This document shows, one piece after another, positions 2,876-22,065 of a stretch of 29,483 bases of DNA. Made by a program: the position numbers and the translations under genes. Each line of letters starts with the position of its first letter. Within the stretch, counting starts at the first letter, position 1. Below the pieces are notes generated by a model. The model ran no database searches. It was not told the DNA's origin and was given only the letters and a program-made list of their open reading frames with translations. Source of the DNA: a virus. The stretch spans positions 1 through 29,483 of the IMG/VR virus record IMGVR_UViG_3300009151_000273; one strand, given 5' to 3'.

Positions 2876-2904
2876 ATTATACCCCACTAAAATAAAATTG
2901 TCAA
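2876..2904 (-). promoter_or_regulatory. Consensus sigma70 promoter with AGTGGGG motif
   Basis: On the minus strand TTGACA (2899-2904) is followed by a 17-base spacer and TATAAT (2876-2881), a perfect sigma70 match. The last seven bases of the spacer are AGTGGGG, directly abutting the -10 box. The ATG of the first gene lies at 2867, near the expected transcription start, so the mRNA is close to leaderless. Confidence 0.9.
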
Positions 2905-2935: not shown

Positions 2936-3083
2936 AGATTAATTGTTTTTTGTTTTCTTATATTTTACCAGTCCTTTATCCGTTAGGTTCAAAGGGATTA
3001 GGGTGAGGGTACATACCCCCTTTAGGGGGTGTTTACCTATATCCGCCCTTTACCCGTCCGAACGTGCCAAAAACAATTAATCT
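2936..3083. repeat. Non-coding region bounded by 15-bp inverted repeats
   Basis: AGATTAATTGTTTTT at 2936-2950 is repeated exactly in inverse orientation at 3069-3083. Between them are a hairpin at 3015-3030 and two copies of the 10-mer that forms the array at 18793-19053: CTTTATCCGT at 2974-2983 and CTTTACCCGT at 3048-3057. A TTAGGTTCAAA element near 2984 also matches that array. No open reading frame is apparent. The region lies between two leftward transcription units. It could be an origin or partition element, or a terminator plus regulator region; I cannot decide. Confidence 0.7.
3015..3030. other. Perfect GC-rich hairpin (ACCCCC/GGGGGT)
   Basis: Six-base arms ACCCCC and GGGGGT separated by TTTA give a compact hairpin unusual in this AT-rich genome. 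There is no T-run on either side, so it is a weak terminator candidate. It sits centrally between the 15-bp inverted repeats at 2936 and 3069. Confidence 0.6.
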
Positions 3084-3085
3084 AT

Positions 3086-3283
3086 TTAAAAACGAGTTTC
3101 TATTTGTGTTAAACAATCTAGTGGGTGGTATACTGTATGACTGGATTTTTCATTATATCCTTGGCGTTTAAGTTTAACGCTAAACATCTTTGTACCAACT
3201 TTAAATAATGTACCGTAAAGTTCCCCATTCTCTTTATATACGTCACATCCAATAAATGCTTGACCTTTTGTATGTAATTTCAT
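3086..3283 (-). CDS. Unknown 65-aa protein downstream of the primase-helicase
   Basis: Not recognised. It starts MKLHTKGQAFIGCDVYKENG and has alternating hydrophobic and charged residues suggesting a small beta fold (GTLFKVGTKMFSVKLK). The start overlaps the primase-helicase stop by four bases, so it is the second gene of that leftward operon and is probably translated by coupling. Its position suggests an accessory replication role, but nothing in the sequence confirms it. Confidence 0.7.
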   Translation of the reverse strand: MKLHTKGQAFIGCDVYKENGELYGTLFKVGTKMFSVKLKRQGYNEKSSHTVYHPLDCLTQIETRF

Positions 3284-5211
3284 TTCTTAGTTACCAATTT
3301 AACACATACAGGCTGACCAATAGCAGGTTTTGTTTTTTCCAAAATTTTTGATTTATCTATATATTTAGTCAATGTAGGCTCACTAACTCCAAAGTGTTTT
3401 ACTAAATCCATAAATTTAGTTTGTCCATTTTTCTTAACATATTCTTCCATAGCCTCAGTTATATTTGCTACAATCTTAGGCTCAGAATCTGTAAGTCTTG
3501 TTAGAATACCAGTATCAGGATTAAAAGATATTTTAAATATCTGACCACCGTCATCACTAACAAGTTTATCCTCATCACGAAAATCAAATGTTACCTTTAC
3601 CCCATCATAATCTTTAGATGTATCATTAGCAACAAATAATCCAAAATCAGCTTCTCCACCAGCTCGACTACTACCACGTAATGCTTTCCATTTTTCTGTA
3701 ATATTTCCTTCTTTACCAAAGTGATGAATAACAAGTATACATAGTTTTGGAGAACTATTCAAAATCTCAAACAAAGCATCCCAAATTGGGGCTGTCTCAG
3801 TTGATGAGTCCTCATTTACATTATGTAATCTTTGAAATGGATCTAAGATTAGAACTCCAATATCATTGTCAAGAATAACTTTCTTTATTCTCTTGACATC
3901 TTTAGGATTATCTAACTTATAACCAGCTTTAAAAGACCATTTAGCTTTTTCACGGTTTGGACAGCCGTTAAATACTTTTGTTATACGATCCTGAAATTTC
4001 TTTTTACTACCTTCAGTCTGAACATACATAACATTTGGTAAAGCTTTAGTAGAAGTAAACTCCCCCATTCCAAGAAATTGACTGCCAGTGTCTAGTAATG
4101 ATCTAACAAGATTTAAAGCAATCCATGTTTTCTTAGACTTTTGTGCTCCACCAATAATTCCAATTTGACCAGAATTTAAAAAATGACTAACATATTCAAT
4201 AAGATGGTCGTCGTCTTCTCTTTCTACTAAAAAGTCATCTGTGCTTTGTAAGTCACTAGAAGTGTGACTTGAAGATACAGTAGATAATATCTTATCAATT
4301 AAGACATCCCCACTATCAGCATTTTGAGCAAACCAATCACATATATCTTTTCCTAATTGCCTACGATTCCATTCAAGATTAAGTTGGACAAAAGAACCTT
4401 TGTGATTCTTTTCCCAATTTTTAACCATTTCAGATCCAGCAGAATCTGAGTCTGGAATAATTATAAATAAATCAATATTAGATAAATCTCTTTCCCACTC
4501 TACTTGATAGCTTGTACCGGGAGTTGCAATTATTGGAATATTAATTCCACGTTTCTTAAACTCAAACATAAGTTTAAAGTAATCGCTTTCCCCTTCTACA
4601 GCCACAGCTACCCTGCAATCAATTGGAATATTATCCAATCCAAGTGGGAGATATAATGATTTATCTAATCCTGATTTCTTACCTTCAATATTTCTAAATC
4701 GTAGACCAACTATTTGGTCATTATAAAAGTATGGAATGACAATACAGTCTCCCAAATCTTTTCCGGGTATATCTGACGCTTCCAAAAATCCAACATTATT
4801 ATACTCTAATATTGAAAGATCAAAACCCTTCTCTTTACAGTAGTCAACAGCAAATGTATCTTTTAAAGACACTCGCCTAGACTTCATATACATATCTCTC
4901 CACTCAGGTTTTTCTTGAGCGTAGACAAATTTATTTGAAAAGTTATTTTCTGGGGCAGCTAGTCCATTTGCATTTCTGAAACTATCAACTTCTACCATAG
5001 CTTCTGGCATTGATTTACCAGAAATTAATGATACAAATTTAGTGGCTGAATAAGATATAGAACATGGGAAACAATGAAATACCCCATTTTTTAAATTTAC
5101 ACCAGCACTTTTATTAGTATCTTGATGAAATGGACATTTACAGGATGTAAACCCTTCACTTTTTAAAGACCCAAGTTCTATATATTTCTTATACAAACCA
5201 AGGTAGTCCAT
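3280..5211 (-). CDS. Primase-helicase fusion (CHC2 zinc finger, Toprim, RepA-like ATPase, winged helix)
   Basis: A 643-aa replication protein. Residues 26-50 carry a primase-type zinc finger (C26, H29, C47, C50). A Toprim core follows, with the conserved Glu in VEGESD (about 206-210) and DSD in PDSDSAG (about 253-259), the metal site for primer synthesis. A P-loop ATPase of the RepA/AAA_25 type comes next, with Walker A GGAQKSKKT (354-362) and Walker B LILDP (about 454-458), then HHFGKEG and an Arg-containing sensor region (LRGSSRAGG). The last 50 or so residues resemble a winged helix-turn-helix. It should synthesise primers and unwind DNA at the fork. The ATG lies nine bases beyond the -10 of the divergent promoter, so the mRNA is nearly leaderless. 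The domain calls are firm; the DNA target of the C-terminal domain is unknown. Confidence 0.9.
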   Translation of the reverse strand: MDYLGLYKKYIELGSLKSEGFTSCKCPFHQDTNKSAGVNLKNGVFHCFPCSISYSATKFVSLISGKSMPEAMVEVDSFRNANGLAAPENNFSNKFVYAQEKPEWRDMYMKSRRVSLKDTFAVDYCKEKGFDLSILEYNNVGFLEASDIPGKDLGDCIVIPYFYNDQIVGLRFRNIEGKKSGLDKSLYLPLGLDNIPIDCRVAVAVEGESDYFKLMFEFKKRGINIPIIATPGTSYQVEWERDLSNIDLFIIIPDSDSAGSEMVKNWEKNHKGSFVQLNLEWNRRQLGKDICDWFAQNADSGDVLIDKILSTVSSSHTSSDLQSTDDFLVEREDDDHLIEYVSHFLNSGQIGIIGGAQKSKKTWIALNLVRSLLDTGSQFLGMGEFTSTKALPNVMYVQTEGSKKKFQDRITKVFNGCPNREKAKWSFKAGYKLDNPKDVKRIKKVILDNDIGVLILDPFQRLHNVNEDSSTETAPIWDALFEILNSSPKLCILVIHHFGKEGNITEKWKALRGSSRAGGEADFGLFVANDTSKDYDGVKVTFDFRDEDKLVSDDGGQIFKISFNPDTGILTRLTDSEPKIVANITEAMEEYVKKNGQTKFMDLVKHFGVSEPTLTKYIDKSKILEKTKPAIGQPVCVKLVTKK

Positions 5212-5298: not shown

Positions 5299-5511
5299 AT
5301 GACTAATATGGAATTTAAACGAAGAGTTAAAAAATTAACTCAGATACAACTAGCAGAAATACTTGGTGTATCTCAAGCATGTATTTCGTATCTTGAAAAG
5401 GGAGTAATTAAAGTTGGATTAGACGTGATAGACAATGCAAAAAGTCATTTAGGTTTTGAAGGAACAACAGAAGAGTTTTTAAGTGAAATAAATGAGAGTA
5501 ATTCTAAATAA
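5299..5511 (+). CDS. XRE/Cro-like helix-turn-helix regulator
   Basis: A 70-aa protein made almost entirely of an XRE-family DNA-binding domain. The helix-turn-helix is clear in TQIQLAEILGVSQACISYLE (residues about 14-33), with the typical LA-LGVSQ-I-E pattern. There is no C-terminal dimerisation or cleavage domain, so it resembles Cro or a small autorepressor more than a cI-type repressor. It is the first rightward gene after a divergent promoter pair with a palindromic operator covering both -35 boxes, so it probably controls both itself and the primase-helicase operon. The downstream resolvase gene overlaps its end by 20 bases. Confidence 0.85.
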   Translation: MTNMEFKRRVKKLTQIQLAEILGVSQACISYLEKGVIKVGLDVIDNAKSHLGFEGTTEEFLSEINESNSK

Positions 5512-5995
5512 TTTAAAGGATTATAATGATATACTGGCGTATGATCCTGGCGGTACTACGGGTTTCTCGCGTATACGTGTATCTCGCGAGCGTAATAGTA
5601 TGGAAGTCTATGAGATAGGCGAGTTTCATACCACGGCGTTATTACGTAAACATTTATCAGAATTAAATAATGGAAAAACTTTAGTAGTTTATGAGAGCAT
5701 TGTAATAAGCACAAGGGTAGCTACACAACAAACTGTAAAAATACCAATTGAAGTTATCGGAGTTATAAATTTTCTTTGCGACGAATATAAGATAATTAGG
5801 TTTGATCAAAAACCAGCAGAAAGACTTGTATCTGAAACATGGTATCCTAAATTACACAACATACCTAGTCATAGTGGAAGTGCAACAAGACATGGAGTTG
5901 TATTTGCTAGATCAAAAATGATACCGGTTAGTGAGAAATTTCCAAAACTAATATTTGATACTAAAGAATTGAATAGAAACTTTATTAAGTATTGA
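5492..5995 (+). CDS. RuvC-like Holliday junction resolvase
   Basis: A 167-aa RNase H-fold nuclease. The first beta strand has ILAYDPGGTTGF (catalytic Asp at 18), the form seen in phage RuvC-like resolvases, and a second acidic residue follows in LVVYESIV (Glu at 68). The C-terminal acidic residues are less clear. It would cut branched DNA during replication, recombination or before packaging. It overlaps the XRE gene, and its TGA stop (5993-5995) lies inside the -35 box of the next promoter. The 5' part (about 5530-5640) is near 50 percent G+C, far above the rest of the gene, suggesting mosaic origin. Confidence 0.75.
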   Translation: MRVILNNLKDYNDILAYDPGGTTGFSRIRVSRERNSMEVYEIGEFHTTALLRKHLSELNNGKTLVVYESIVISTRVATQQTVKIPIEVIGVINFLCDEYKIIRFDQKPAERLVSETWYPKLHNIPSHSGSATRHGVVFARSKMIPVSEKFPKLIFDTKELNRNFIKY

Positions 5996-6020
5996 CAAAA
6001 CTTAATTAGTGGGGTATACT
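5992..6020 (+). promoter_or_regulatory. Leaderless-type promoter with AGTGGGG motif
   Basis: TTGACA (5992-5997), a 17-base spacer ending in AGTGGGG (6008-6014), and TATACT (6015-6020). The ATG of the nuclease gene follows after exactly six bases (AGGGTT), where transcription should begin. The stretch from the -10 box into the start codon is identical to that at 11820. Confidence 0.9.
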
Positions 6021-6026
6021 AGGGTT

Positions 6027-7019
6027 ATGGCGAAAAGGATAAATTGGTCCCGCGCTACCGAAAAGTCTAAACAAGAATTAATCGTAACAAATAATGAACG
6101 ACCATACGTAAAAAATTTACACATAACAGACATTGCATCATATCTAAGATGCCGACGACAATTCTTTTATGAAAAATATCTACGATTAAAGCCCATTAAC
6201 TGGACTAATCCTGATTATTTTGATATTGGAACTTTAGGCCACAGTGTTTTGGCAAACAAATACACAAATAAAGATTTTGTTTGGCCTGAAGAAACCGAAA
6301 ATTCATTGTTAGTTGAAGCACTAATTAAAGAATACGAGTTGTTTTATAATGATAGCCAATTTGAAGTTCTATCCGTAGAAGATCAAAGAAGTATAGTTAT
6401 TGATGGACAAGAAATATTTTTTACTCTGGATATGTTGTTTACAGATTGGAGTGGTCCACAGCCTATTATTAGGATTATGGATCACAAATTCTACAATTCT
6501 TTACCAGATCCAGAAGCATTACAATTTGATTTTCAAATTACAGCTTATTTATGGTTATGTAGAGAATTAGCAATTCCTGCTAAATCGCTTGTTTTGAATT
6601 GTATTCGTAAAACTCCAAGCAAACATCCAGAAATAACTTCTACAGGAAAAATAAGTGTTTCACAAACAAGTTTAAATTCTACTAACTACCAACTATTTTT
6701 AGAGGTAGTAGATATGATGGGACACTCCCATTCAAAGTATGAAAATGAACTTCAAATTTTAAAAAATCGTGAATCTAAAGTATTTAAAAGATATAAAGAA
6801 TCACGATCTGACGCTGAACTAGATTCATTTGGAGAATTTCTTAGAAAGATTGTAAAAGATATTAGACAAGATGATTTCTACCCAACTAGATCTGCTTCAG
6901 TATTTGACGGATGTATGAAATGTAAGTTTAACGATTTATGTTTGCACCAAGATAGAAAACTAAATATGAAAGCAAAGATTCATAACGATTACAAACAAAA
7001 AGAACCAGATGAACGTTAA
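6027..7019 (+). CDS. PD-(D/E)XK nuclease of the Cas4/RecB type with Fe-S cysteines
   Basis: A 330-aa protein starting MAKRINW. This start is chosen because it lies at the predicted transcription start; an upstream extension in the same frame would include promoter DNA. Nuclease motifs: His71 in LGHSVLANKY, Asp134 in FTLDMLF, D151-H-K153 in IMDHKF and Gln169 in the QITAYLW helix. One Cys near the N-terminus (C42 in YLRCRRQF) and three near the C-terminus (C296, C299, C305 in CMKCKFNDLC) match the split Fe-S cluster of Cas4/AddB exonucleases. It probably resects DNA ends for recombination, alongside the ATPase and DUF669 proteins downstream. The next gene overlaps by 11 bases. Confidence 0.88.
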   Translation: MAKRINWSRATEKSKQELIVTNNERPYVKNLHITDIASYLRCRRQFFYEKYLRLKPINWTNPDYFDIGTLGHSVLANKYTNKDFVWPEETENSLLVEALIKEYELFYNDSQFEVLSVEDQRSIVIDGQEIFFTLDMLFTDWSGPQPIIRIMDHKFYNSLPDPEALQFDFQITAYLWLCRELAIPAKSLVLNCIRKTPSKHPEITSTGKISVSQTSLNSTNYQLFLEVVDMMGHSHSKYENELQILKNRESKVFKRYKESRSDAELDSFGEFLRKIVKDIRQDDFYPTRSASVFDGCMKCKFNDLCLHQDRKLNMKAKIHNDYKQKEPDER

Positions 7020-8338: not shown

Positions 8339-8413
8339 GGGCTTGTAGCTCAAAGGTAGAGCTGGCGGCTCATAACTGCTAGGTTTAAGGTTCGAGTCCT
8401 TACTGGCCCACCA
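8339..8413 (+). tRNA. tRNA with CAT anticodon (elongator Met or Ile2), CCA encoded
   Basis: A complete 75-nt cloverleaf: seven-base acceptor stem with one T-T mismatch and one G-T pair, D arm GCTC/GAGC with GG in the loop, anticodon loop CTCATAA (anticodon CAT), a five-base variable region, T arm TAAGG-TTCGAGT-CCTTA, discriminator A and an encoded CCA. The G1-C72 pair excludes a bacterial initiator tRNA. Whether it is Met or lysidine-modified Ile cannot be told from sequence alone; AT-rich phages often carry tRNAs for codons rarer in the host. Confidence 0.92.
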
Positions 8414-8426
8414 AACAATTAAATAA

Positions 8427-8597
8427 GTGGATATAAATACTCTACAATATGTTAGGACTGCCATAGCTAACAGAATAAGAAAGATTAGAGCAGATAAAGA
8501 AGACTTTGAAAAAGACCCAAAAATTTTAGTTTTATATGAACTGTCTGAACATCTGGAGAATACAATAATTGAATCTACCAATAATTCAAGAACCTAA
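8427..8597 (+). CDS. Possible 56-aa small protein before the DNA polymerase
   Basis: A GTG at 8427 opens a 56-codon frame ending in TAA at 8595, overlapping the polymerase start by 29 bases. The product (start VDINTLQYVRTAIANR) looks like a charged amphipathic helical protein. The frame fills the gap between the tRNA and the polymerase and provides a ribosome passing over the polymerase TTG start. There is no good Shine-Dalgarno site and a stop lies directly upstream of the GTG, so the start is uncertain. Confidence 0.45.
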   Translation: MDINTLQYVRTAIANRIRKIRADKEDFEKDPKILVLYELSEHLENTIIESTNNSRT

Positions 8598-10884
8598 ATG
8601 TGGCGGTTGCACCTTAAACACCAGAAATAAAAAGATAATTGGGGGATTGGGTGAAACCAATTCCCCTGATTTATTTATTATAGCTGAAGCTCCTAGTTCT
8701 GAAGAACATTACAATGATACAGCTTTTAGCGGCAGGTTTAATAAAATGTTGCTAAAAGTTATATCAGAGTTAGAAACAAAATTAGATCGTAAGATAAATG
8801 TATATGGAACTTATGCGGCTAGTTGTAGACATTTTTCAGAGAGAGCCCCAACACAACACGAATTAATGTGTTGTAATAATAGACTTGTTTCTGAGATTCA
8901 AGCATATAAACCTAAAGCAATATTGATCCTAGGTTTAAATGCTGCTTCCTTCCTAACTGATGCTAAATCTATTTCATCAGCTAGAAATAAAGTATTCAAA
9001 TTCCAAGACATCCCCACTGTAATAACATATTCACCATCTTTTGTATTTGCTAAAGGTAACAGCACATCATTTCAATCATTTGTAGATGATATAGTGTTAG
9101 CTATTGAAGCACCATTAGAGAAGAAATATGATTGGGGTAAACGAAATTACAAAGTTGTAAACAATGAAAAAGACTGTATCGAATTATTTAAAACTATTGG
9201 TAAGTCAGGTGAGCGAGTTTCTCTCGATATTGAAAACACTTCTGGCTTTAACCCTTATGCTGCTTTTATATTGTATGTGGGTATTAAACATAGCTCTGGA
9301 ACATACATTATTCCAAACAACATTTTCAAAGCTTGTAAGGAACATTTTAACCCAAATACAAATGTAATAGTACACAGGGCCGCACATGAGTATAAGTTCT
9401 TTGCAGTTCATTACGACATTTGGTTAACAAACATAGATGATACATTATCTATGTTCCATCAATGTGATGAGCGTACAAACGTTTATGCAGACAAAGATCT
9501 TAAATCATTAGGCAAACTTTTAGTAGATGCTCCAGATTGGGATGAAAATATTCATAAATACATAAATAGAATGGAGCAAGCTCCAATAATGATGCTGTAT
9601 GAATATCTTGCATATGATGTGGATGTTACATATGCTATTGAGCCTGTAATAAAAGATATGCTCGTTAAAGATAATACTTTGGAAGCGTATGAAAAAGTAA
9701 TTAGGCCATCTATTCCATTCCTAAATAAGATGTCTAATCATGGTATTAGAATTGATCTTGATTATGTGGAGGTAATTGATAGAGAACTTACGGAAGATTT
9801 AAATAATATTAAAGAGCAATTTGGAAAGTTAACAAGTAAAGATATAAACATAGGAAGCCCATTACAATTAGCAACATTACTTTATGATGAAATGGGGTAT
9901 CCGTATGATAGTAAAAAATCCACAAATGAAAAAACACTTGTAGAATTGGCTACTAAGTTTCCAGAAGATACTGAAGTAATTGATTTAATTCTTGCTTATA
10001 GAAGTACATCTAAATTATTATCTACATATGTAAAAGGTATTTATGGCCATGAACATAATGGTAAATGGGTAGATGGCTTATGTAGGCCTGATGGTAGAAT
10101 ACATGCTGAATTTAAATTGGAAGGTACATCTACTGGGCGATTATCAGCTGAATTAGTTCAAACAATTCCTAGTAGAAAAGGACCACTAATTAAGAAAATG
10201 TTTTTACCTGATGATGGTATGGATTTAATTGAGTTAGACTATAAACAACTTGAGTTGCGTATGGGTGCCCATATGAGTGGTGATAAAGTTCTTACTGATT
10301 ATATTAATAGCGGGAACGATATGCACACTGATATGGCTAGACTTATATTTGGAATACATAACATTACTAAAGACCAAAGATTTGTTGCTAAATCTGGAAA
10401 CTTTGGTGTTATGTATCGTATGGATGAAAAAGCTGCCTTTTACAATCTTAAAAAAGAATTTCCAGCTATGACTATGGAATTAGCTAAAAAGATTGTCGAT
10501 ATGCCACGTGATAAATTCAGACAACTATTTTTCTGGTCAACTTCTATGTTGGCTCAGGCTATGGAAGATCACTATACAACTACAATTTTTGGTAGGAAAA
10601 GAAGATTCCCACTAATACATGAGGGTAATTATGATGAAGTATTAAAACAAATGTCTAACGCAGGAATTCAAGGCTCTTCAAGTGATGTAAACTTGTTGGC
10701 CGCATCAAGATGTGATAGAGAGTTACCAATTAATAGCCACCTATTAGTTCATGACTCTTATGTAGCATCAATACCTAAAGGATTTGATCCTAAAGAGATA
10801 GTACAAAGAATGGAAGACGTACCGTTTAAAACTAATGTAAAGTTTGAAGTTGAATATAAAGTTATGGACAAGTGGGGAGGTTAG
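8569..10884 (+). CDS. Family A DNA polymerase with N-terminal uracil-DNA-glycosylase-like domain
   Basis: A 771-aa replicative polymerase starting at TTG 8569, supported by GGAGA nine bases upstream. Residues about 1-180 form a family 4/5 UDG-like domain with four Cys (C11, C14, C86, C101) placed as for a 4Fe-4S cluster, but the usual GEAPG active loop reads AEAPS. A DnaQ-like 3'-5' exonuclease follows (DIE at 220-222; YDVDVTYAIE later). The polymerase has motif A DYKQLELR (about 558), motif B RFVAKSGNFGVMYR (about 604) and motif C HDS (about 728). Arg replaces the usual Gly at the end of motif B. It should copy the phage genome with proofreading; the UDG part may sense uracil or be structural. 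Confidence 0.92.
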   Translation: MNLPIIQEPKCGGCTLNTRNKKIIGGLGETNSPDLFIIAEAPSSEEHYNDTAFSGRFNKMLLKVISELETKLDRKINVYGTYAASCRHFSERAPTQHELMCCNNRLVSEIQAYKPKAILILGLNAASFLTDAKSISSARNKVFKFQDIPTVITYSPSFVFAKGNSTSFQSFVDDIVLAIEAPLEKKYDWGKRNYKVVNNEKDCIELFKTIGKSGERVSLDIENTSGFNPYAAFILYVGIKHSSGTYIIPNNIFKACKEHFNPNTNVIVHRAAHEYKFFAVHYDIWLTNIDDTLSMFHQCDERTNVYADKDLKSLGKLLVDAPDWDENIHKYINRMEQAPIMMLYEYLAYDVDVTYAIEPVIKDMLVKDNTLEAYEKVIRPSIPFLNKMSNHGIRIDLDYVEVIDRELTEDLNNIKEQFGKLTSKDINIGSPLQLATLLYDEMGYPYDSKKSTNEKTLVELATKFPEDTEVIDLILAYRSTSKLLSTYVKGIYGHEHNGKWVDGLCRPDGRIHAEFKLEGTSTGRLSAELVQTIPSRKGPLIKKMFLPDDGMDLIELDYKQLELRMGAHMSGDKVLTDYINSGNDMHTDMARLIFGIHNITKDQRFVAKSGNFGVMYRMDEKAAFYNLKKEFPAMTMELAKKIVDMPRDKFRQLFFWSTSMLAQAMEDHYTTTIFGRKRRFPLIHEGNYDEVLKQMSNAGIQGSSSDVNLLAASRCDRELPINSHLLVHDSYVASIPKGFDPKEIVQRMEDVPFKTNVKFEVEYKVMDKWGG

Positions 10885-11747: not shown

Positions 11748-11796
11748 AATGGTCACCACAAAACTTTTAATTATAAAAACAATTAGTTTATAAGAA

Positions 11797-11825
11797 TTGA
11801 CTAAAAATCTATAGTGTGGTATACT
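11797..11825 (+). promoter_or_regulatory. Leaderless-type promoter of the SNF2-like helicase
   Basis: TTGACT (11797-11802), a 17-base spacer ending in AGTGTGG, and TATACT (11820-11825), followed by AGGGTT and the ATG at 11832. The -10 box, start region and first codons (Met-Ala-Lys) match those at 6015-6035, a partial promoter-start duplication. Confidence 0.9.
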
Positions 11826-11831
11826 AGGGTT

Positions 11832-13367
11832 ATGGCGAAAATGACGCTTCAACAAAAGTTTTCTCAGTTGGCCGCTGAAAGAATTAGTTCAACAAATAAA
11901 GTGGTAGAAGATACTAAAACATTTGATTTTAGTAAATTCCCCACTATGTATGAATACCAAAAAGCTGGCGTAAAGTTTCTATCTAATCCTAAGAAGCATC
12001 GTTCAATTTTAGCTGATGGTATGGGATTAGGTAAGACATTGCAAGCTATTGGTGCTTATTACAATCACGATAAATCAGGTAACGCTAAGCTTTTAATTAT
12101 CACTACAAAAAATGCTAAAGCTACCTGGCGCCGAGAATTGTTTAAATGGTTGAAGCGTGATGATACTTGTATTATTGAATCTACAGATGGCATTATGGGT
12201 GCTACACAGAAAATTCTTTTAAATAAAGCACCAATTGTTGTAGTCAACTTTGAAAGTATGGCTAATCTAAAAGATTTAATTATGTCGCAACCGTGGCATT
12301 TTATTGTTGTTGACGAAGCGCACAAATTGCGTAATCGTGATACTAAAATGTTTAAAGCTTGTTTAGAAGTATTTAGACATTTTCAAATGATTCCATTAAA
12401 ACTGTTGACAGGTACACCGTTAATCAATAAGCCACAAGATTTGTTTTCACTATTACAATGTCTTTATCCTTCCTCTTTCACTTCTGAATCTGAATGGATT
12501 GATAATCATTTTTGGGTTAAGACAATGTTTGGTGAGCAATCTTATAAAGAAGTAACTTCTAAGAAAAAAGCAAATGGTGGTACAGGTAAGTTAACTTATA
12601 CACATAAAAATCAAGAAGAGTTTAAAAAGTATATGTCTAAATATATGCTTCGACGAACTCCAGAAGATGTTTTAGATTTACCTGATTTGATGGAAGAAAT
12701 TATTCCTATTGAATTGACCGGTAAGCAACTTAAAATGTATGAAGATATTCGTGATTTGTGGGCTGCTGAATTTGACGGTAAGGAATCTGTATCAATTACT
12801 GTAGTTATTGCACAGATTCAAAGGCTAAAACAAATTTCTTTGTCTTTAGGTTTAATGTGGGGTGAATCTTGCGAAGGTCCAAAAACAGATAGAATTATTG
12901 ATATTCTAGAAGAAAGTGATGACGATGAGAAATTTGTTATTACATCGTCTTATTCTACATATCTTAAACCACTTGCTAAGCTATTAAATGAGCGTGGGAT
13001 TAAAACTGTATGTTTGACCGGTGCTAGTTCTACAGAACAACGTACTAAAATGGAAAATGATTTTCAAGCTGAGAATTCAGATATTAAAGTATTTCTATTC
13101 TCTACCAAAGCAGGTAGTGAATCAATTACTTTAACTGCCGCTAATACTATTATCTTTACGGATAAACCTTGGACTGCGGCTTCGGAAGATCAAGCTGTTG
13201 GACGTATTAAACGTATTGGTCAAAATAAGAAGATGAAGAAAATTGTTTTGGAAGCTGAAAATACAGTTGAACAATACATTCAAGCTATTATTGACCAAAA
13301 GCGTAATATGTTTGAAGAATCTATTCCTGTTTCATTAGTTCGTGCTATGTTGTTTGGCAGTAAATAA
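11832..13367 (+). CDS. SNF2/DEAD-like superfamily 2 helicase
   Basis: A 511-aa helicase with both RecA domains. N-terminal lobe: a YEYQKAGVKFL Q-like motif (about 40-50), Walker A DGMGLGKT (62-69), Walker B DEAH in VVDEAHKLRN (about 158), and motif III-like LTGTP. C-terminal lobe: FSTKAGSESITLTAAN (motif V) and QAVGRIKRIGQ (motif VI with Arg fingers). This is the SNF2/RapA-type arrangement also common in phage early regions; it may translocate on duplex DNA to remove proteins or remodel forks. I set the start at ATG 11832, where transcription should begin. Arg is mostly CGT here while neighbours use AGA, hinting at separate origin or high expression. Confidence 0.9.
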   Translation: MAKMTLQQKFSQLAAERISSTNKVVEDTKTFDFSKFPTMYEYQKAGVKFLSNPKKHRSILADGMGLGKTLQAIGAYYNHDKSGNAKLLIITTKNAKATWRRELFKWLKRDDTCIIESTDGIMGATQKILLNKAPIVVVNFESMANLKDLIMSQPWHFIVVDEAHKLRNRDTKMFKACLEVFRHFQMIPLKLLTGTPLINKPQDLFSLLQCLYPSSFTSESEWIDNHFWVKTMFGEQSYKEVTSKKKANGGTGKLTYTHKNQEEFKKYMSKYMLRRTPEDVLDLPDLMEEIIPIELTGKQLKMYEDIRDLWAAEFDGKESVSITVVIAQIQRLKQISLSLGLMWGESCEGPKTDRIIDILEESDDDEKFVITSSYSTYLKPLAKLLNERGIKTVCLTGASSTEQRTKMENDFQAENSDIKVFLFSTKAGSESITLTAANTIIFTDKPWTAASEDQAVGRIKRIGQNKKMKKIVLEAENTVEQYIQAIIDQKRNMFEESIPVSLVRAMLFGSK

Positions 13368-15641: not shown

Positions 15642-15644
15642 AAT

Positions 15645-15664
15645 GGGTCCCCTTTGCCAATATT
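15645..15664 (+). repeat. GGGTCCCCTTT...CCAATAT element, copy 2
   Basis: Matches the element at 11155-11174 except for one or two bases before CCAATAT. It begins three bases after a stop codon, as at 11155. Function unknown. Confidence 0.6.
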
Positions 15665-15688
15665 TTGAGCTATATTACATTTTAAAAC

Positions 15689-15721
15689 CTTATTAGTTAT
15701 CTAATCAGATTAACTAATAAG
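15689..15721. terminator. Hairpin, possible terminator of the 14805-15641 unit
   Basis: Perfect 11-bp arms CTTATTAGTTA (15689-15699) and TAACTAATAAG (15711-15721) with an 11-base loop. Only three T bases follow, so termination would be weak; a regulator-binding site is also possible. Confidence 0.5.
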
Positions 15722-15742
15722 TTTGGAATTGTAATAGATAAT

Positions 15743-15776
15743 TACCCCACTATTATACTTAGGTATTAGTGGGGTA
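15743..15776. terminator. Inverted repeat of the AGTGGGG motif, terminator-like
   Basis: TACCCCACTA (15743-15752) pairs with TAGTGGGGTA (15767-15776) across a 14-base loop, followed by TATTTGTG. The same construction as the terminators at 324 and 26116 but with a longer loop. Confidence 0.6.
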
Positions 15777-16190
15777 TATTTGTGTATAAATATATGTAAA
15801 TTTAGTGGGGAATAGTAATAGATAATTGTACAGAAACTTAGGTAGGATTTAATTTAGCGTCTATATATTTATCTAAATAATTTTTAAAATAATTATAAAA
15901 TTATGATTTCAGGTTAAAATAATTGTTAAGAATCTGTTAGCGGCTAACGGTTACTTTATGTCAAATGTTAAAATGATGCTGTTGTAATATATCTTCAAAT
16001 GACCTTTTTCGCAACTGCAGCGAATTTGATTTAGAATAGTACATAGGTACCTGTTTACCTGGTGCGCTTTTTACGTTTGGTCCGTCTCACAATTTCAGTA
16101 GACCGCCGAACCTTGAAACCGTCTATATGTATATATCTGTGGTGCTGAGAGGGAATTTTAGAAAAATGCTGAAAAATTCGTGTAGAGGGG

Positions 16191-16251: not shown

Positions 16252-16974
16252 ATGTCCAACGACCATGCTACCGATGTATCACTTGTCGAAGAGCAAGTAG
16301 CTAATCTTACGTTCCAATTGGAACTGTTTAAAATGAGTCTCCGTATCGCTCCGGGAGAGAAGCAGATAAACAAGTCTCTCAAGGAATTAGCGCTAAAAAT
16401 TCCAAAGCGATACCATGAAGTTTTAAAGGTTCTTTTTGACGTTGCAAAACCGGATGGGACTAGTGAGAAAGTTTTAATCCAAGAGATTGTAGGACCGAAA
16501 GCAATCGCATACGGTTTTAAACAGTTTCAAAATAAAGCAGATGCAGTTCACTTCTTCACACAGTGGGCAGATAAGGCCTTAGAAGCCATTCAACTAATCC
16601 CTCGTGATCTTTTAGAAGTCACAAAGGGACGTAATGCAGAGTCTGAAAAGGTTACCTTTAATGGGGAAACTAAATTAATTGCGGAATTCGCAATTGACAT
16701 GGTCGCAGGTTCTAAGCTTGCTGAATATCTTGCAGGGAATATTAAAGTAGACTTTGAAAATGCAGATCAGTTGGCCTCTCTGAATCGTATTCTTTCAGTG
16801 ATTAAAACCGGTACTCACCAAATTATCCCAGATGATGTTCGTTCTAAATATTTTGGTAAGAAGAAACGAGTAAAGGATGCAGTTAACGAACCAGTTAATA
16901 ATGAACCAGTAACTGATGATGATGATGATGAGGATGATGATTATGCATCATCGAATGACGATCTTCTAAGCTAA
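16252..16974 (+). CDS. Unknown 240-aa protein with an acidic C-terminal tail
   Basis: Not recognised. It starts MSNDHATDVSLVEEQVANL. Residues 1-190 look mainly helical and soluble, and the last 35 residues are an acidic tail with a run of Asp (NEPVTDDDDDEDDDYASSND) encoded by repeated GAT. Acidic tails of this kind occur in single-strand-binding proteins and DNA mimics, but the core matches neither by eye. Base composition is clearly higher in G+C than in the flanking replication genes. It has its own promoter at 16191 and a hairpin after it. No strong ribosome-binding site precedes the ATG. Confidence 0.75.
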   Translation: MSNDHATDVSLVEEQVANLTFQLELFKMSLRIAPGEKQINKSLKELALKIPKRYHEVLKVLFDVAKPDGTSEKVLIQEIVGPKAIAYGFKQFQNKADAVHFFTQWADKALEAIQLIPRDLLEVTKGRNAESEKVTFNGETKLIAEFAIDMVAGSKLAEYLAGNIKVDFENADQLASLNRILSVIKTGTHQIIPDDVRSKYFGKKKRVKDAVNEPVNNEPVTDDDDDEDDDYASSNDDLLS

Positions 16975-17040: not shown

Positions 17041-17331
17041 ATGAAAAATAATCTATCTACTTCTATTCAACAATCAAACGGGTTTTACATCCCCGGTGAG
17101 TCAGCATCTATTCCTATGTCCTTTGACTCTGATGTATCGGCTACTTTCTATGAATTCGTAACTGGACGCACAATCCCAGATGATGAGTTCACTAATTGGG
17201 AATTAGTCCACAGTCTAAAATATGGTGATGATGTACTCATGGAACATCATAAAAAGTCTATCCAAAATGAACCGGTTTCTTTTATCCCAGATACCTTTAT
17301 GAGTCGTTACAATTCCAAAAATGGACCATAG
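17041..17331 (+). CDS. Unknown 96-aa protein
   Basis: Not recognised. It starts MKNNLSTSIQQSNGFYIPGE and is acidic, with SFDSDVSATFYEFVTGRTIPDDEF in the middle and no membrane segment. It follows a hairpin without a visible promoter of its own, so read-through from 16191 is the likely source. Composition matches the island rather than the flanking phage genes. A terminator follows at 17361. Confidence 0.65.
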   Translation: MKNNLSTSIQQSNGFYIPGESASIPMSFDSDVSATFYEFVTGRTIPDDEFTNWELVHSLKYGDDVLMEHHKKSIQNEPVSFIPDTFMSRYNSKNGP

Positions 17332-18425: not shown

Positions 18426-18517
18426 GTATACATACATGTAGACTAATGTATACCATTTTTATCTAATGGTACATAAGTAATCAATTCTTTATCTAATGTA
18501 GATATATGTATGTATAC
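18426..18517. promoter_or_regulatory. Repeat-rich upstream control region of the leftward trio
   Basis: GTATACATAC (18426-18435) and its inverse GTATGTATAC (18508-18517) enclose two direct copies of TTTATCTAATG (18458-18468 and 18488-18498), spaced 30 bases (about three helical turns). This looks like a multi-site operator upstream of the gene starting at 18317. I could not single out a convincing -35/-10 pair for the promoter. Confidence 0.5.
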
Positions 18518-18792
18518 TCTTGCTTGCAAAAGAAATAAAATTGCATTGGGTCCCTTTTAACCCTCAGGTTATTTTGTAGAAAATCTTACTTAGCTATAAA
18601 TTATAACCAACTTATCTATTCTTAAACAATTCAAACTTTTATCTCATGATTTCTTTATCAAAATAATTTATAACTAACTTACTAATTGTTTTTCCTATTA
18701 ATCTTTTTCTCTCTACCATTACTTCGGCCCATTGCTGGGATATATAGTTACACTATATATACCCTTGCATTTATGGGTGCCGGCCAGGTGCG
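18518..18792. other. AT-rich non-coding stretch beside the iteron array
   Basis: No gene seen. 18548-18558 holds the short GGGTCCCTTTT element. About 18560-18715 is very AT-rich with several T-runs, as expected of a DNA-unwinding element. A hairpin with ATATATAG/CTATATAT arms (18740-18747 and 18753-18760) follows. Next to the repeat array at 18793, the arrangement resembles a replication origin, though none of this is proof. Confidence 0.55.
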
Positions 18793-19053
18793 ACGGATAA
18801 AGCTTTATCCGTTCATTTTAGGTTCAAAATACCCCCACTAGACCGGTAACGGATAAAGACGGATAAAGGGTATTTAGGCCTGATTAGCTTTACCCGTTCC
18901 GAATCGTGCCTTTATCCGTTCCAAAATACCCCCATTTTGAACCTAAAACCGGCCAAAATTGAACGGATAAAACGACCGGTAAACCCTTTACCCGTTAACG
19001 GATAAAGCGACGGATAAAGACGGATAAAGGGTATCCGAACCGGCTTTACCCGT
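18793..19053. repeat. Iteron-like array of a 10-bp repeat (12 copies)
   Basis: Consensus ACGGATAAAG (variant ACGGGTAAAG). Forward copies start at 18793, 18849, 18859, 18963 (last base A), 18998, 19010 and 19020; inverse copies start at 18803, 18888, 18910, 18986 and 19044. The first two form a perfect 20-bp palindrome; 18849/18859 and 19010/19020 are head-to-tail. Also present: a 15-bp inverted repeat (TTTTAGGTTCAAAAT at 18816-18830 and its inverse at 18934-18948) and a 13-bp direct repeat CAAAATACCCCCA (18825 and 18922). Candidate replication origin, partition site or activator cluster for the late promoter. Confidence 0.9.
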
Positions 19054-19055
19054 GG

Positions 19056-19061
19056 TATAAT
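19056..19061 (+). promoter_or_regulatory. Late promoter -10 box without a -35
   Basis: TATAAT preceded by GTGG, as in the early promoters, but the -35 position reads ATCCGA instead of TTGAC. The last iteron-like repeat (19044-19053) ends two bases upstream of it. This suits a late promoter that needs an activator bound to the repeats, or the phage sigma-like protein, but that is inference. The first late gene starts 26 bases downstream. Confidence 0.6.
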
Positions 19062-19087: not shown

Positions 19088-19651
19088 ATGTCGAATATAC
19101 TATTAGAAAAATCAATTCTTGATTACCTAGAAAATAATCAAGTTGCTATCAAAAGCTACATTAAATATGAGCTAACTAGGTGTGCAAAAACGATGTCTGA
19201 TAATGAAGATTTTGAAGATTTGTATACAGTAGTTTATATAAAACTTTGGAATACATTTAAAATAGAATCTATGATTGGCATAAGCATGATCTCATATTGT
19301 CAAATGACAATTAAAAATGCTGTGCAAGATTTAATTAGAAAAAGAACAGCAAATAAAAGAGATGCAAGGAAAACTATACCTTGGGATCCAGAATTAGACT
19401 TTGCAATACCTGAAGAACCAGAGGATGATGTAAAAATTCTATTTAAAAACAACTTTGGAATGACTGTAGAAGAGTTGTTAATCAAAATAGAAAGGATAGA
19501 TTCCCCACTGACATATGTAGAATACACTGCAATTAAAAAGTTTATTGAAAACGATGGATCTTTGTATAAAAATGGCGGTGAAAATAAAAAATATAATCGT
19601 CCATTCAATAGAGCAATAGCAAAGCTAAAGGAAATGTATAATGTCAGTTAA
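19088..19651 (+). CDS. Sigma-factor-like protein (ECF-type region 2)
   Basis: A 187-aa protein. Residues about 38-85 resemble sigma70 region 2: DNEDFEDLYTVVYIKLWNTF, then SYCQMTIKNAVQDLIRKR, matching the DL-Q-VF--LW and Y---I--N---D--RK pattern. The C-terminal part (PLTYVEYTAIKKFIEN, then NRPFNRAIAKLKEM) could be a diverged region 4 helix-turn-helix. It is the first gene of the late operon, a logical place for a factor redirecting host RNA polymerase to phage late promoters. Alternative: a helical DNA-binding protein tied to packaging. The start ATG has AGGGG about ten bases upstream; its end overlaps the next gene by 11 bases. Confidence 0.65.
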   Translation: MSNILLEKSILDYLENNQVAIKSYIKYELTRCAKTMSDNEDFEDLYTVVYIKLWNTFKIESMIGISMISYCQMTIKNAVQDLIRKRTANKRDARKTIPWDPELDFAIPEEPEDDVKILFKNNFGMTVEELLIKIERIDSPLTYVEYTAIKKFIENDGSLYKNGGENKKYNRPFNRAIAKLKEMYNVS

Positions 19652-20558
19652 AAGTAGGGTTCCTGAAGAATGGACTACAAGTCTAGATGGTAAAAAGATT
19701 TGTGGTGCTCTTAAAAAAGATGGATCAAAAGCTGAATGGGATGAAATGAAATATGATCCTTATTATAATAAACATGGAATTACCCCACTAGAATTAAAAT
19801 TAAACCATCCGGACAAATTTCAAAGAATGATTTGTCATGCTCCACCTACTTCTGATCCTAATTATTCTTTAAGTGGAAGATGCAGAAATCATGGCGCTCA
19901 TGGTGGTCGTCCAATTAAAGATGGGATTGGTAAATATTCTAAACTTAGACAATATACAAGTCCTGGTCGATTAGAAGAAATATTTGACGAAAACAAAGAA
20001 CATAATGATCTAAAAGCTGAATTAGACATTATGACTACCATAATTGATGAAAAACTGCCTGCAGCTTTGTCAGATACAGCTTCTGCTGCCAATGAAGTTT
20101 TACGCGGACATATCCATCAATTAAAATTAGCTTTTTCTTCACTTGACCCAGAAAAAATCAATTCCATTCTAGATAAAATGGAAAAAATGATTGATGATAA
20201 TTTGCAAAGTAAAACTGCTCAAAAAGAAACAGTATCTTTGCTTAAAGAATACTCTGACATGGTAAGAATTAACCATGAAATTAAACAGAAAGCTGAAGCT
20301 CATTTTCCAAAATCAGCGTTGGTAGTTAATACAGTATTAATTGTAAACTTAGTAAAGGAATTTTTAACAGATGCGCAAAAGCAACTCCTCAACCGAAGAT
20401 TGGAAAATGCAATTGAGAATGGGCGTCTCGGAGGCTTTATTCCCGAAGAATATAGAAATGATCCAATTGTCAGACCTTTCAATTCGGGACAAGAACAGGA
20501 AAATAATTCCGTTGTGTTTGAATCAAGCACAGCAATTATACCTAGAGAAGAATCCTAA
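19641..20558 (+). CDS. Putative terminase small subunit
   Basis: A 305-aa protein just before the terminase large subunit. The N-terminal third has a Cys/His motif (MICHAPPT, SGRCRNHGAHGGRPIKDGIGKY, split at about residues 60-98) followed by SPGRLEEIF, a form I associate with small-terminase-like proteins of tailed phages. The rest is helical and coiled-coil-like, suited to a ring oligomer that recognises the packaging site. Position and architecture support the call, but no exact family match can be checked here. Its last 188 bases overlap the large subunit gene in another frame. Confidence 0.55.
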   Translation: MSVKSRVPEEWTTSLDGKKICGALKKDGSKAEWDEMKYDPYYNKHGITPLELKLNHPDKFQRMICHAPPTSDPNYSLSGRCRNHGAHGGRPIKDGIGKYSKLRQYTSPGRLEEIFDENKEHNDLKAELDIMTTIIDEKLPAALSDTASAANEVLRGHIHQLKLAFSSLDPEKINSILDKMEKMIDDNLQSKTAQKETVSLLKEYSDMVRINHEIKQKAEAHFPKSALVVNTVLIVNLVKEFLTDAQKQLLNRRLENAIENGRLGGFIPEEYRNDPIVRPFNSGQEQENNSVVFESSTAIIPREES

Positions 20559-22065
20559 GCTACAGACATTTAGAGGTAACCGTGAAATAATTCTTAAAGC
20601 CCGTCAAATGGGCTTTACAACTTTAATTGCGGCTAAAATGTTTTTAGATACAGTAAATATACCAAATACTGAATCTATAATGGTAGCTCAAGATGAAACT
20701 AACGCTAAAAAACTATTTAATCTTATTAAAAGGTTTAATGAAAATCTTCCACCTGAGTTAAAACGTAAAGTTGGCACTGATTCTGTAACTAAACTTGAAT
20801 TTAGTGAGATTAATTCTGTTTTTACTGTTGGTTGGGCAGGTTCTGCTAAACTAGGTCGTGGCGGCACACTAAATAATGTTCATTTTTCTGAAGCTGCTTT
20901 TTATACTGATGCTGGTCCACTAATCAGTGGTTTGCTAGAATCTGTCCCACTTGATGGAAATGTATTTATGGAAAGCACCGCAAACGGTGTTGGAAATTAT
21001 TTTTGTCAAGAATATAGAGATGCAGAAGAAGGAAATAGTATTTATAAAGCTAGATTTTTCCCTTGGTATATAGATCCAGCATATAATATACCTTTAGATG
21101 ATGAAGAAGAATTTTCCCCCACTGATGAAGAGTTTAAATTAATTGATCTGTATGATTTAACTTTTGGTCAACTTAAATGGCGACGATATAAAGTTTTAGC
21201 TTTAAGAAATACAAGACGAGAAGGAACCAGCGAAGAAGGAGAATTCCCACAAGAGTATCCAATTAATGCTCAAGAGGCTTTTCTTACAACTGGTGTTGGA
21301 TTTTTTAATAATTCGTTTATTGATACTGAGCTTGCTCCTATTGCTGCATCAAGTGAAAAATTAAAAATAGAAGTGCCTAGAAAATATAATTCTATTTGGC
21401 AAGAAAGTAAAAGATCTAACGTGTCTTTAACTATTTATGAACTCCCACAACAAGGTCATAGATATGTTATAACTGCTGACCCATCCGAAGGTTTAAATCA
21501 AGATGGACAATCAGACAGTTGTTCAACAGATATTCTTGACTCTGAAACAATGAATCAAGTAGCTACATTGTATGGAAAATGGGAACCACAAGTATATGCT
21601 GAATTATTAAATGATTTAGGATTGTGGTATAACACTGGTTTGATAGCTGTAGAAAGGAATAATCATGGTCACTCAGTTTTAAATACGTTAATTAATGTAT
21701 TAGAATACCCTCATGTATACTATGGAACTGAATATGATGTCAAAAACAAAAAACAGACTAAAAAACCTGGACATCATACAAATGTAAAATCTAAAATAAT
21801 GGCACTAGATTCTTTAAATGAATTAGCTATGGATGGATCTTTGATAATTAGATCTAACAGAACTCTAACTCAAATGAAAAATTATTCTAGATTGCCTGGT
21901 AATAAATTTGGTGCATCTATAGGACATGATGATGCAGTAATGTCTTTAGCAATTGGATGTTCTGTTTTGAAAGATGCTAGAGCATTAAAAGCTTTTAAAG
22001 AAAATAGAAAAAATACAGCAAGGCCTGTAATGTTCAAATATAAGGGTTCGGTAGCTTTTCAATGA
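20371..22065 (+). CDS. terL: Terminase large subunit
   Basis: A 564-aa packaging motor. ATPase: ILKARQMGFTT with a deviant Walker A (ARQMGFTT, residues 77-84), Walker B region NNVHFSEAAFY and coupling motif MESTANGVGNYF. Nuclease: first Asp in VITADPSEGLNQDGQSD, Glu in LIAVERNNHGHS, and GHDDAV near the end, all in RNase H-type order. It packages DNA into the prohead and cuts the concatemer. The ATG at 20371 has AAAGGAA ten bases upstream and lies deep within the upstream gene; later in-frame ATGs (20407, 20419, 20458) are possible, but the family-like segment ALFPKNI at residue 22 suggests starting before 20434. It overlaps the portal gene by four bases. Confidence 0.93.
   Translation: MRKSNSSTEDWKMQLRMGVSEALFPKNIEMIQLSDLSIRDKNRKIIPLCLNQAQQLYLEKNPKLQTFRGNREIILKARQMGFTTLIAAKMFLDTVNIPNTESIMVAQDETNAKKLFNLIKRFNENLPPELKRKVGTDSVTKLEFSEINSVFTVGWAGSAKLGRGGTLNNVHFSEAAFYTDAGPLISGLLESVPLDGNVFMESTANGVGNYFCQEYRDAEEGNSIYKARFFPWYIDPAYNIPLDDEEEFSPTDEEFKLIDLYDLTFGQLKWRRYKVLALRNTRREGTSEEGEFPQEYPINAQEAFLTTGVGFFNNSFIDTELAPIAASSEKLKIEVPRKYNSIWQESKRSNVSLTIYELPQQGHRYVITADPSEGLNQDGQSDSCSTDILDSETMNQVATLYGKWEPQVYAELLNDLGLWYNTGLIAVERNNHGHSVLNTLINVLEYPHVYYGTEYDVKNKKQTKKPGHHTNVKSKIMALDSLNELAMDGSLIIRSNRTLTQMKNYSRLPGNKFGASIGHDDAVMSLAIGCSVLKDARALKAFKENRKNTARPVMFKYKGSVAFQ

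What the first reader, a model, noticed from the sequence alone, without database searches (positions are those of the whole stretch)
18793..19053. Iteron-like array of ACGGATAAAG with nested inverted repeats
Twelve copies of one 10-mer within 261 bases, including a perfect 20-bp palindrome, head-to-tail pairs, a 15-bp inverted repeat and a 13-bp direct repeat. An AT-rich stretch and hairpin lie on one side, a -10 box without -35 on the other. Could be the replication origin, a partition site, or an activator array for the late operon.
Basis: seen in the sequence. Interest (0 to 1): 0.75.

Follow-up and report, generated by a model that had tools for sequence, protein, structure and literature searches.

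The report
Two-site repeat array, likely phage origin
In a family of uncultured freshwater phages, a cluster of a dozen short DNA repeats beside the packaging genes, and a smaller copy beside the phage's DNA-copying enzyme, have changed in step over evolution and are most likely the sites where copying of the phage genome starts or is controlled.

Summary
The region 18793-19053 has 12 copies of ACGGRTAAA (8 of them exact ACGGATAAAG) in both orientations, against 0.35 expected in the whole window. It carries the same motif, the GAACCTAA element and a CCCCCTAAAGGGGG palindrome.

Both sites recur at the same gene-order positions in two divergent phage lineages (primase-helicase 62% and 48% identical). 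In the farther lineage the motif has drifted to ACGCATAAAG, seen at both sites. That points to one binding protein acting at both, more likely phage-encoded than host DnaA. The array lies in the largest intergenic gap of two relatives, beside DNA among the least stable in each genome. The primase-helicase ends in a predicted winged-helix DNA-binding domain.

Best reading (0.55): an iteron-type replication origin with a second initiator site, resembling SPP1 oriL/oriR in layout and P4 alpha in its putative initiator. Main rival (0.25): activator sites for the late operon, whose promoter has an extended -10 and no -35. A packaging site is less likely and a partition site unlikely. Binding and origin activity were not shown, and GC skew is uninformative.

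The parts
18793..19053 (.). Main array (site 1): 12 copies of ACGGRTAAA in both orientations at 18793+, 18803-, 18849+, 18859+, 18888-, 18910-, 18963+, 18986-, 18998+, 19010+, 19020+, 19044-
18816..18830 (-). TTTTGAACCTAAAA element, copy 1 (arm of the 15-bp inverted repeat)
   Evidence: kept in the arrays of G005, G006 and G007
18934..18948 (+). TTTTGAACCTAAAA element, copy 2
18825..18837 (+). CAAAATACCCCCA direct repeat, copy 1
18922..18934 (+). CAAAATACCCCCA direct repeat, copy 2
18737..18763 (.). Hairpin on the distal flank of the array (GGGATATATAGTTACACTATATATACCC); strong hairpins, several with a CCCT..AGGG core, occupy this position in the relatives
   Evidence: for relatives
18438..18736 (.). 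AT-rich intergenic flank, candidate DNA unwinding element; holds the 2nd and 4th least stable 120-bp stretches of the window
19053..19061 (+). Extended -10 (TGGTATAAT) of the late operon, no -35
19088..19651 (+). First gene of the late operon, weak sigma-70 region 2 similarity
   Evidence: 5e-5, just under the Pfam cut-off
19641..20558 (+). Probable small terminase subunit (position before the large subunit; Cys/His-rich N-terminus, coiled C-terminus); no family match
   Evidence: inference
20371..22065 (+). Large terminase subunit
2974..3057 (-). Second site (site 2): two motif copies (3048-3057 ACGGGTAAAG, 2974-2983 ACGGATAAAG) flanking the palindrome and GAACCTAA
3016..3029 (.). Palindrome CCCCCTAAAGGGGG of site 2; its core CCCTAAAGGG occurs once in the window, and only at the two sites in each of G005, G006 and G007
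2876..2904 (-). Consensus sigma-70 promoter TTGACA-N17-TATAAT downstream of site 2, almost leaderless ATG at 2867
3280..5211 (-). Primase-helicase: CHC2 zinc ribbon, Toprim-like region (Toprim_2 matched only weakly in the relatives), RecA-fold AAA_25 helicase, C-terminal winged helix; candidate initiator
3283..3462 (-). Winged-helix domain of the primase-helicase (about residues 584-643), candidate array-binding domain
   Evidence: (pLDDT 80-90)

Best explanation
The array is the main element of an iteron-type replication origin of this phage lineage, and the smaller site at 2974-3057 is a second site bound by the same initiator. The initiator is most likely the phage primase-helicase, whose C-terminal winged helix would bind ACGGRTAAA copies, melt the AT-rich flank at 18438-18736, load its own helicase ring and prime. 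Shown here: the repeats, the second site, conservation of both in three lineages, the same motif change at both sites in the drifted lineage, the unstable flank, and the predicted winged helix. Inferred: that the primase-helicase is the binder, that DNA opens at the flank, and that replication starts here. Which site fires first, or whether one arrests forks as proposed for SPP1 oriR, is open.
For: Repeat density far above chance. The motif outside the array is confined almost wholly to site 2. Site 1 and site 2 keep their gene-order positions in three lineages: the window, G005/G006 (primase-helicase 62% identical) and G007/L041 (48%). CCCTAAAGGG occurs only at the two sites in G005, G006 and G007. 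The drifted G007 motif ACGCATAAA is in its array (20027, 20077) and in its site 2 (39822). The array lies in the largest intergenic gap of G005 and G006. Among the least stable 120-bp stretches of each genome, some flank the array on the same side: ranks 2 and 4 in the window, 2 in G005, 1 and 2 in G006, 3 in G007. The primase-helicase ends in a winged-helix fold, pLDDT 80-90, whose best structural matches are winged-helix proteins. No DnaC-type loader or other named origin-binding protein was found among the window proteins scanned. Precedents: SPP1 has two origins of repeats plus AT-rich DUE bound by one protein (PMC6316719; PMC3485210); P4 alpha binds origin repeats with a winged helix and then unwinds and primes (PMC4234260).
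Against: No binding, replication or depth data. GC skew follows gene strand; third-position skew shifts between the two sites only in G007, not in the window or G005. Large intergenic regions tend to be AT-rich anyway. Both sites sit upstream of promoters, so regulation alone could explain them. Motif and wing changes are too few for a real coevolution test. The hairpin potential is mostly explained by motif copies in two orientations, so it is not independent support.
Confidence: 0.55

Rival explanations
1. The array is an activator-binding region for the late operon (and site 2 for the minus-strand operon). A phage regulator, perhaps the sigma-like protein, the Cro-like HTH protein (5299-5511) or an unknown protein, binds the repeats and switches on transcription.
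For: The late promoter has an extended -10 and no -35, while other window promoters have consensus -35/-10, so the late one may need help. Both sites lie upstream of promoters. The first late gene has weak sigma-70 region 2 similarity in all three lineages.
Against: Distance from the nearest motif to the late -10 is not kept: 2 bp in the window, about 52 in G005 and over 100 in G007. Site 2 sits about 70-90 bp above a full consensus promoter that should need no activator. Ten or more copies are many for an activator. The sigma-like protein is only 32% and 24% identical between lineages, and G008 keeps an array-like region with no sigma-like gene before its terminase genes.
Confidence: 0.25
2. 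The array is the packaging site (pac or cosB-like) bound by the small terminase subunit.
For: It lies just upstream of the terminase genes in every lineage. SPP1 pac overlaps the promoters and start of the small terminase gene (PMC6316719).
Against: A second copy sits 16 kb away beside the primase-helicase gene and is conserved; packaging needs one site. A sigma-like gene separates the array from the terminase genes in three lineages. Contig ends are not shared at the array, although one identical contig does begin inside it.
Confidence: 0.1
3. The array is a centromere-like partition site of a phage-plasmid.
For: Repeat arrays of this kind are used as partition sites (general knowledge).
Against: No ParA, ParB, ParM or integrase match among the window proteins scanned. 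A second, smaller copy beside the primase-helicase is not expected. The tail region of the genome was not scanned completely.
Confidence: 0.03

Closest known systems
SPP1 oriL/oriR (Bacillus phage SPP1)
   Same: A phage of similar size with two separate sites that share repeats beside AT-rich DNA; in SPP1 both are bound by one initiator (PMC6316719, PMC3485210).
   Different: SPP1 oriL lies inside its initiator gene 38; here site 2 lies in an intergenic gap downstream of the primase-helicase gene. No gp38, gp39 or DnaB-type gp40 counterpart was found. Repeats here occur in both orientations.
P4 alpha protein with ori and crr (satellite phage P4)
   Same: One protein with Toprim-type primase, helicase and C-terminal winged helix that binds origin repeats (PMC4234260). 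From memory: P4 also needs a second repeat region, crr.
   Different: The helicase here is a RecA-fold AAA_25 domain; P4 alpha carries an SF3 helicase (from memory). The primase here has a CHC2 zinc ribbon. Repeats are unrelated in sequence as far as known.
RSF1010 oriV with RepA, RepB', RepC
   Same: Iterons plus AT-rich DNA and a RecA-fold hexameric helicase with a dedicated primase (PMC4234260; partly from memory).
   Different: Three separate proteins with an iteron-binding RepC; none was found here.
Late activators of Gram-positive phages (RinA/ArpU/LtrC type, from memory)
   Same: A small regulator acting near the small terminase gene.
   Different: The sigma-like gene is downstream of the array rather than upstream, shows region 2 rather than region 4 similarity, and a second site exists elsewhere.

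Membership tests
Iteron-type replication origin | Cluster of short repeats well above chance in an intergenic region | tested here: met
Iteron-type replication origin | Adjacent AT-rich, easily melted DNA | tested here: met
   computed stability only, melting not tested
Iteron-type replication origin | Initiator protein binds the repeats | not testable with these tools
   Only a predicted winged helix in the primase-helicase
Iteron-type replication origin | Replication starts there or the region replicates a plasmid | not testable with these tools
   No depth or functional data; skew uninformative
SPP1-type two-origin system | Two separate sites sharing repeats | tested here: met
SPP1-type two-origin system | One origin lies within the initiator gene | tested here: not met
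   Site 2 is intergenic, downstream of the primase-helicase and a 65-aa ORF
SPP1-type two-origin system | gp38/gp39/gp40-type initiator, loader and DnaB helicase | tested here: inconclusive
   No such match among window proteins scanned; the window is not the whole genome
P4 alpha-type initiator | Primase and C-terminal winged helix in one protein | tested here: met
   the winged helix is predicted
P4 alpha-type initiator | SF3 helicase domain | tested here: not met
   The helicase domain matches AAA_25 (PF13481), 2.4e-20
P4 alpha-type initiator | Close structural match to the P4 origin-binding domain | tested here: inconclusive
   Not among the listed matches; many winged-helix proteins score alike
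Host DnaA-box origin | TTWTNCACA boxes clustered in the array | tested here: not met
   None in 18793-19053; window count equals chance
pac/cos packaging site | Single site near the small terminase gene where DNA is cut | tested here: inconclusive
   Position fits, but a conserved second site exists; DNA ends not testable
parS-type partition site | Partition ATPase and binding-protein genes in the genome | tested here: inconclusive
   None among window proteins scanned; remaining genome not fully scanned

The most novel reading that the evidence does not exclude
A single phage protein joining DnaG-type primase, RecA-fold helicase and winged helix is a self-contained initiator that binds two origins on opposite parts of a 45-49 kb circular genome, the array acting as main or late origin and perhaps as fork barrier for the switch to concatemer synthesis. 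Origin repeats and initiator have drifted together between lineages.
Probability: 0.3. Interest if true: 0.65.

Novelty: new variant of a known kind. Interest (0 to 1): 0.5.

Why it matters
If right, this places the replication origin and its likely initiator in an uncultured freshwater phage lineage with no close isolate, and describes an initiator layout (RecA-fold helicase in place of the P4-type helicase) that can be tested with one purified domain and a few oligonucleotides. The two sites showing the same motif change in a drifted lineage also give a way to find origins in phages known only from metagenomes: look for a short motif shared by two intergenic sites, one of them beside the replicative helicase gene.

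Tried and rejected
GC skew as origin evidence: it follows gene strand. Third-position and four-fold-site skew between the two sites: significant only in G007, not in the window or G005, so inconclusive. Hairpin or RNA structure as a separate signal: folds beat plain shuffles, but randomising motif orientation gives similar energies; site 2 of the window folds no better than shuffles. Rfam: only the tRNA. DnaA boxes: none in the array. Head-to-tail pattern hits L030 and L032 look like chance: no related genes. Wider capsid relatives have other terminases; the primase-helicase profile found nothing in 16 of their records, and the tool warns that an empty answer shows nothing. Host: the capsid scan of bacterial genomes gave no relative; weak protein matches to Gordonia phages are only a hint. 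The full-length primase-helicase model was poor (mean pLDDT 44.8), so only the C-terminal domain is used. P4 origin-binding domain was not among the structure matches listed.

Full report
Observation. The array is real and at the stated coordinates. Twelve copies of ACGGRTAAA lie in 18793-19053, eight of them exact ACGGATAAAG. The palindrome, head-to-tail pairs, 15-bp inverted repeat and 13-bp direct repeat are all present, plus an unreported 25-bp direct repeat. A first-order Markov null gives 0.35 copies per window against 15 observed, and never more than one per 262 bp.

A second site. Of the 13 ACGGRTAAAG copies in the window, 11 are in the array and the other 2 lie together at 2974-3057 on the minus strand. 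That intergenic site also holds CCCCCTAAAGGGGG and TTTGAACCTAA, elements related to those of the array. It lies after the primase-helicase gene (3280-5211) and a 65-aa ORF, and about 70 bp above a perfect TTGACA-N17-TATAAT promoter. The remaining ACGGRTAAA copy, at 13158, is inside the SNF2-type helicase gene.

The phage. The window is a virus record of 29,483 bases with family A DNA polymerase, SNF2-type helicase, Sak4-like annealing protein with a single-strand-binding protein, primase-helicase, terminase, portal and capsid genes. No isolate is close at DNA level. Four contigs carry the identical array, and the large terminase or capsid genes where recovered are 100% identical; I count them as one lineage with the window.

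Relatives. Two further lineages share the replication and late genes. G005 and G006 have a primase-helicase 62% identical to the window's, G007 48%. L041 belongs with G007. G005 has a 42-bp and G007 a 127-bp end overlap, so both can be read as circular maps. In both lineages the array lies in the gap before the sigma-like, terminase and portal genes, and site 2 follows the primase-helicase and a short ORF. G005 has 10 and G006 11 ACGGRTAAA copies in the array. The core palindrome CCCTAAAGGG occurs exactly twice in each of G005, G006 and G007, once at each site. TTTTGAACCTAAAA is kept in all three arrays.

Motif drift. In G007 the motif has changed mainly to ACGCATAAA with variants GCGGATAAA and GCGCATAAA. 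ACGCATAAA is in its array (20027, 20077) and in its site 2 (39822). The same change at two sites about 20 kb apart points to one protein that binds both. Drift between lineages, and the lack of DnaA boxes in the array, fit a phage-encoded binder better than host DnaA; this step is inference. A more distant capsid relative, G008, has an array-like region with another motif (TTTCATAC) and a TTCGAACCTGAAA element before its terminase genes, without a sigma-like gene in between. That last comparison was made by eye.

DNA around the array. In G005 and G006 the array lies in the largest intergenic gap. Duplex-stability scans put some of the least stable 120-bp stretches of each genome right beside the array on the side away from the late operon: ranks 2 and 4 in the window, 2 in G005, 1 and 2 in G006, and 3 in G007. 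This is the layout described for SPP1 oriL and oriR, repeats beside an AT-rich unwinding element with one initiator binding both (PMC6316719; PMC3485210). Intergenic DNA is AT-rich in general, so this support is moderate. The array strand folds better than shuffles, but most of that comes from motif copies in two orientations.

Candidate initiator. The primase-helicase has a CHC2 zinc ribbon and a RecA-fold AAA_25 helicase domain, with Toprim-like matches in the relatives. Its last 60 or so residues are predicted as a winged helix with pLDDT 80-90 and match winged-helix proteins in the PDB (Z about 8, a common fold). Phage P4 alpha binds its origin repeats with a C-terminal winged helix and then unwinds and primes (PMC4234260). 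The helicase type differs (AAA_25 here, SF3 in P4 from memory), so this is not filed as a member of the P4 alpha family.

How it would work. Shown: repeats, two sites, conservation, the shared motif change, unstable flank, predicted winged helix. Inferred: the primase-helicase binds the repeats, opens the flank, loads its helicase domain and primes. Whether the array is the first origin, a late origin, or a fork barrier as proposed for SPP1 oriR is open.

Rivals. The strongest rival is a late-operon activator array: the late promoter is an extended -10 without -35, unlike two early promoters, which have TTGAC(A/T) and TATACT. Against it, the motif-to-promoter distance is not kept (2, about 52 and over 100 bp), and site 2 stands above a full consensus promoter. 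A packaging site fits the position but not the conserved second site. A partition site lacks partner genes in what was scanned. GC skew does not help.

Verdict. Origin with a second site 0.55, activator array 0.25, packaging 0.10, partition 0.03, remainder unknown. Novelty: new variant of a known kind, function not yet shown. Interest 0.5.

Noticed in passing
window 15642-16126: A second large intergenic gap holding the least stable 120-bp stretch of the window (15784); G005 has a similar-sized gap at 1477-2041 before the homologous 213-aa gene. Function unknown.
   Followed up: partly
window 16252-16974 and 17041-17331: Two genes of unknown function kept in all three lineages between the early genes and the array (240-aa protein 45% and 26% identical); no family match. 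A further candidate array binder.
   Followed up: partly
window 5981-6039 and 11787-11844: A 59-bp repeat, 83% identical, holding a sigma-70-type promoter (TTGAC.../TATACT) with the start codon about 7 bases after the -10, at the starts of a PD-(D/E)XK nuclease gene and the SNF2-type helicase gene.
   Followed up: partly
window 8569-10884: Family A DNA polymerase with an N-terminal uracil-DNA-glycosylase-type domain (Pfam UDG, 9e-15) in one protein.
   Followed up: no
window 8339-8413: A tRNA-Met (CAT) gene just before the polymerase gene.
   Followed up: no
L134 about 2110-2560 (G008): Array-like region with motif TTTCATAC/GTATGAAA and a long hairpin before the terminase genes of a GC-rich capsid relative.
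   Followed up: partly
L144 about 8520-8700: Cluster of CGATAAAGCG/CGTTAAAGCG-type repeats in both orientations in a gap of a capsid relative, downstream of the capsid gene; resembles the window motif.
   Followed up: no
L146 1-350: Cluster of GTTCCACG repeats (five copies of CGTGGAAC) in a non-coding end region of another capsid relative.
   Followed up: no
L133 5113-6000 and 3427-4218 (G007): Genes downstream of site 2 in G007 look like a ThyX-type thymidylate synthase and a MazG-like protein, judged from sequence by eye.
   Followed up: no
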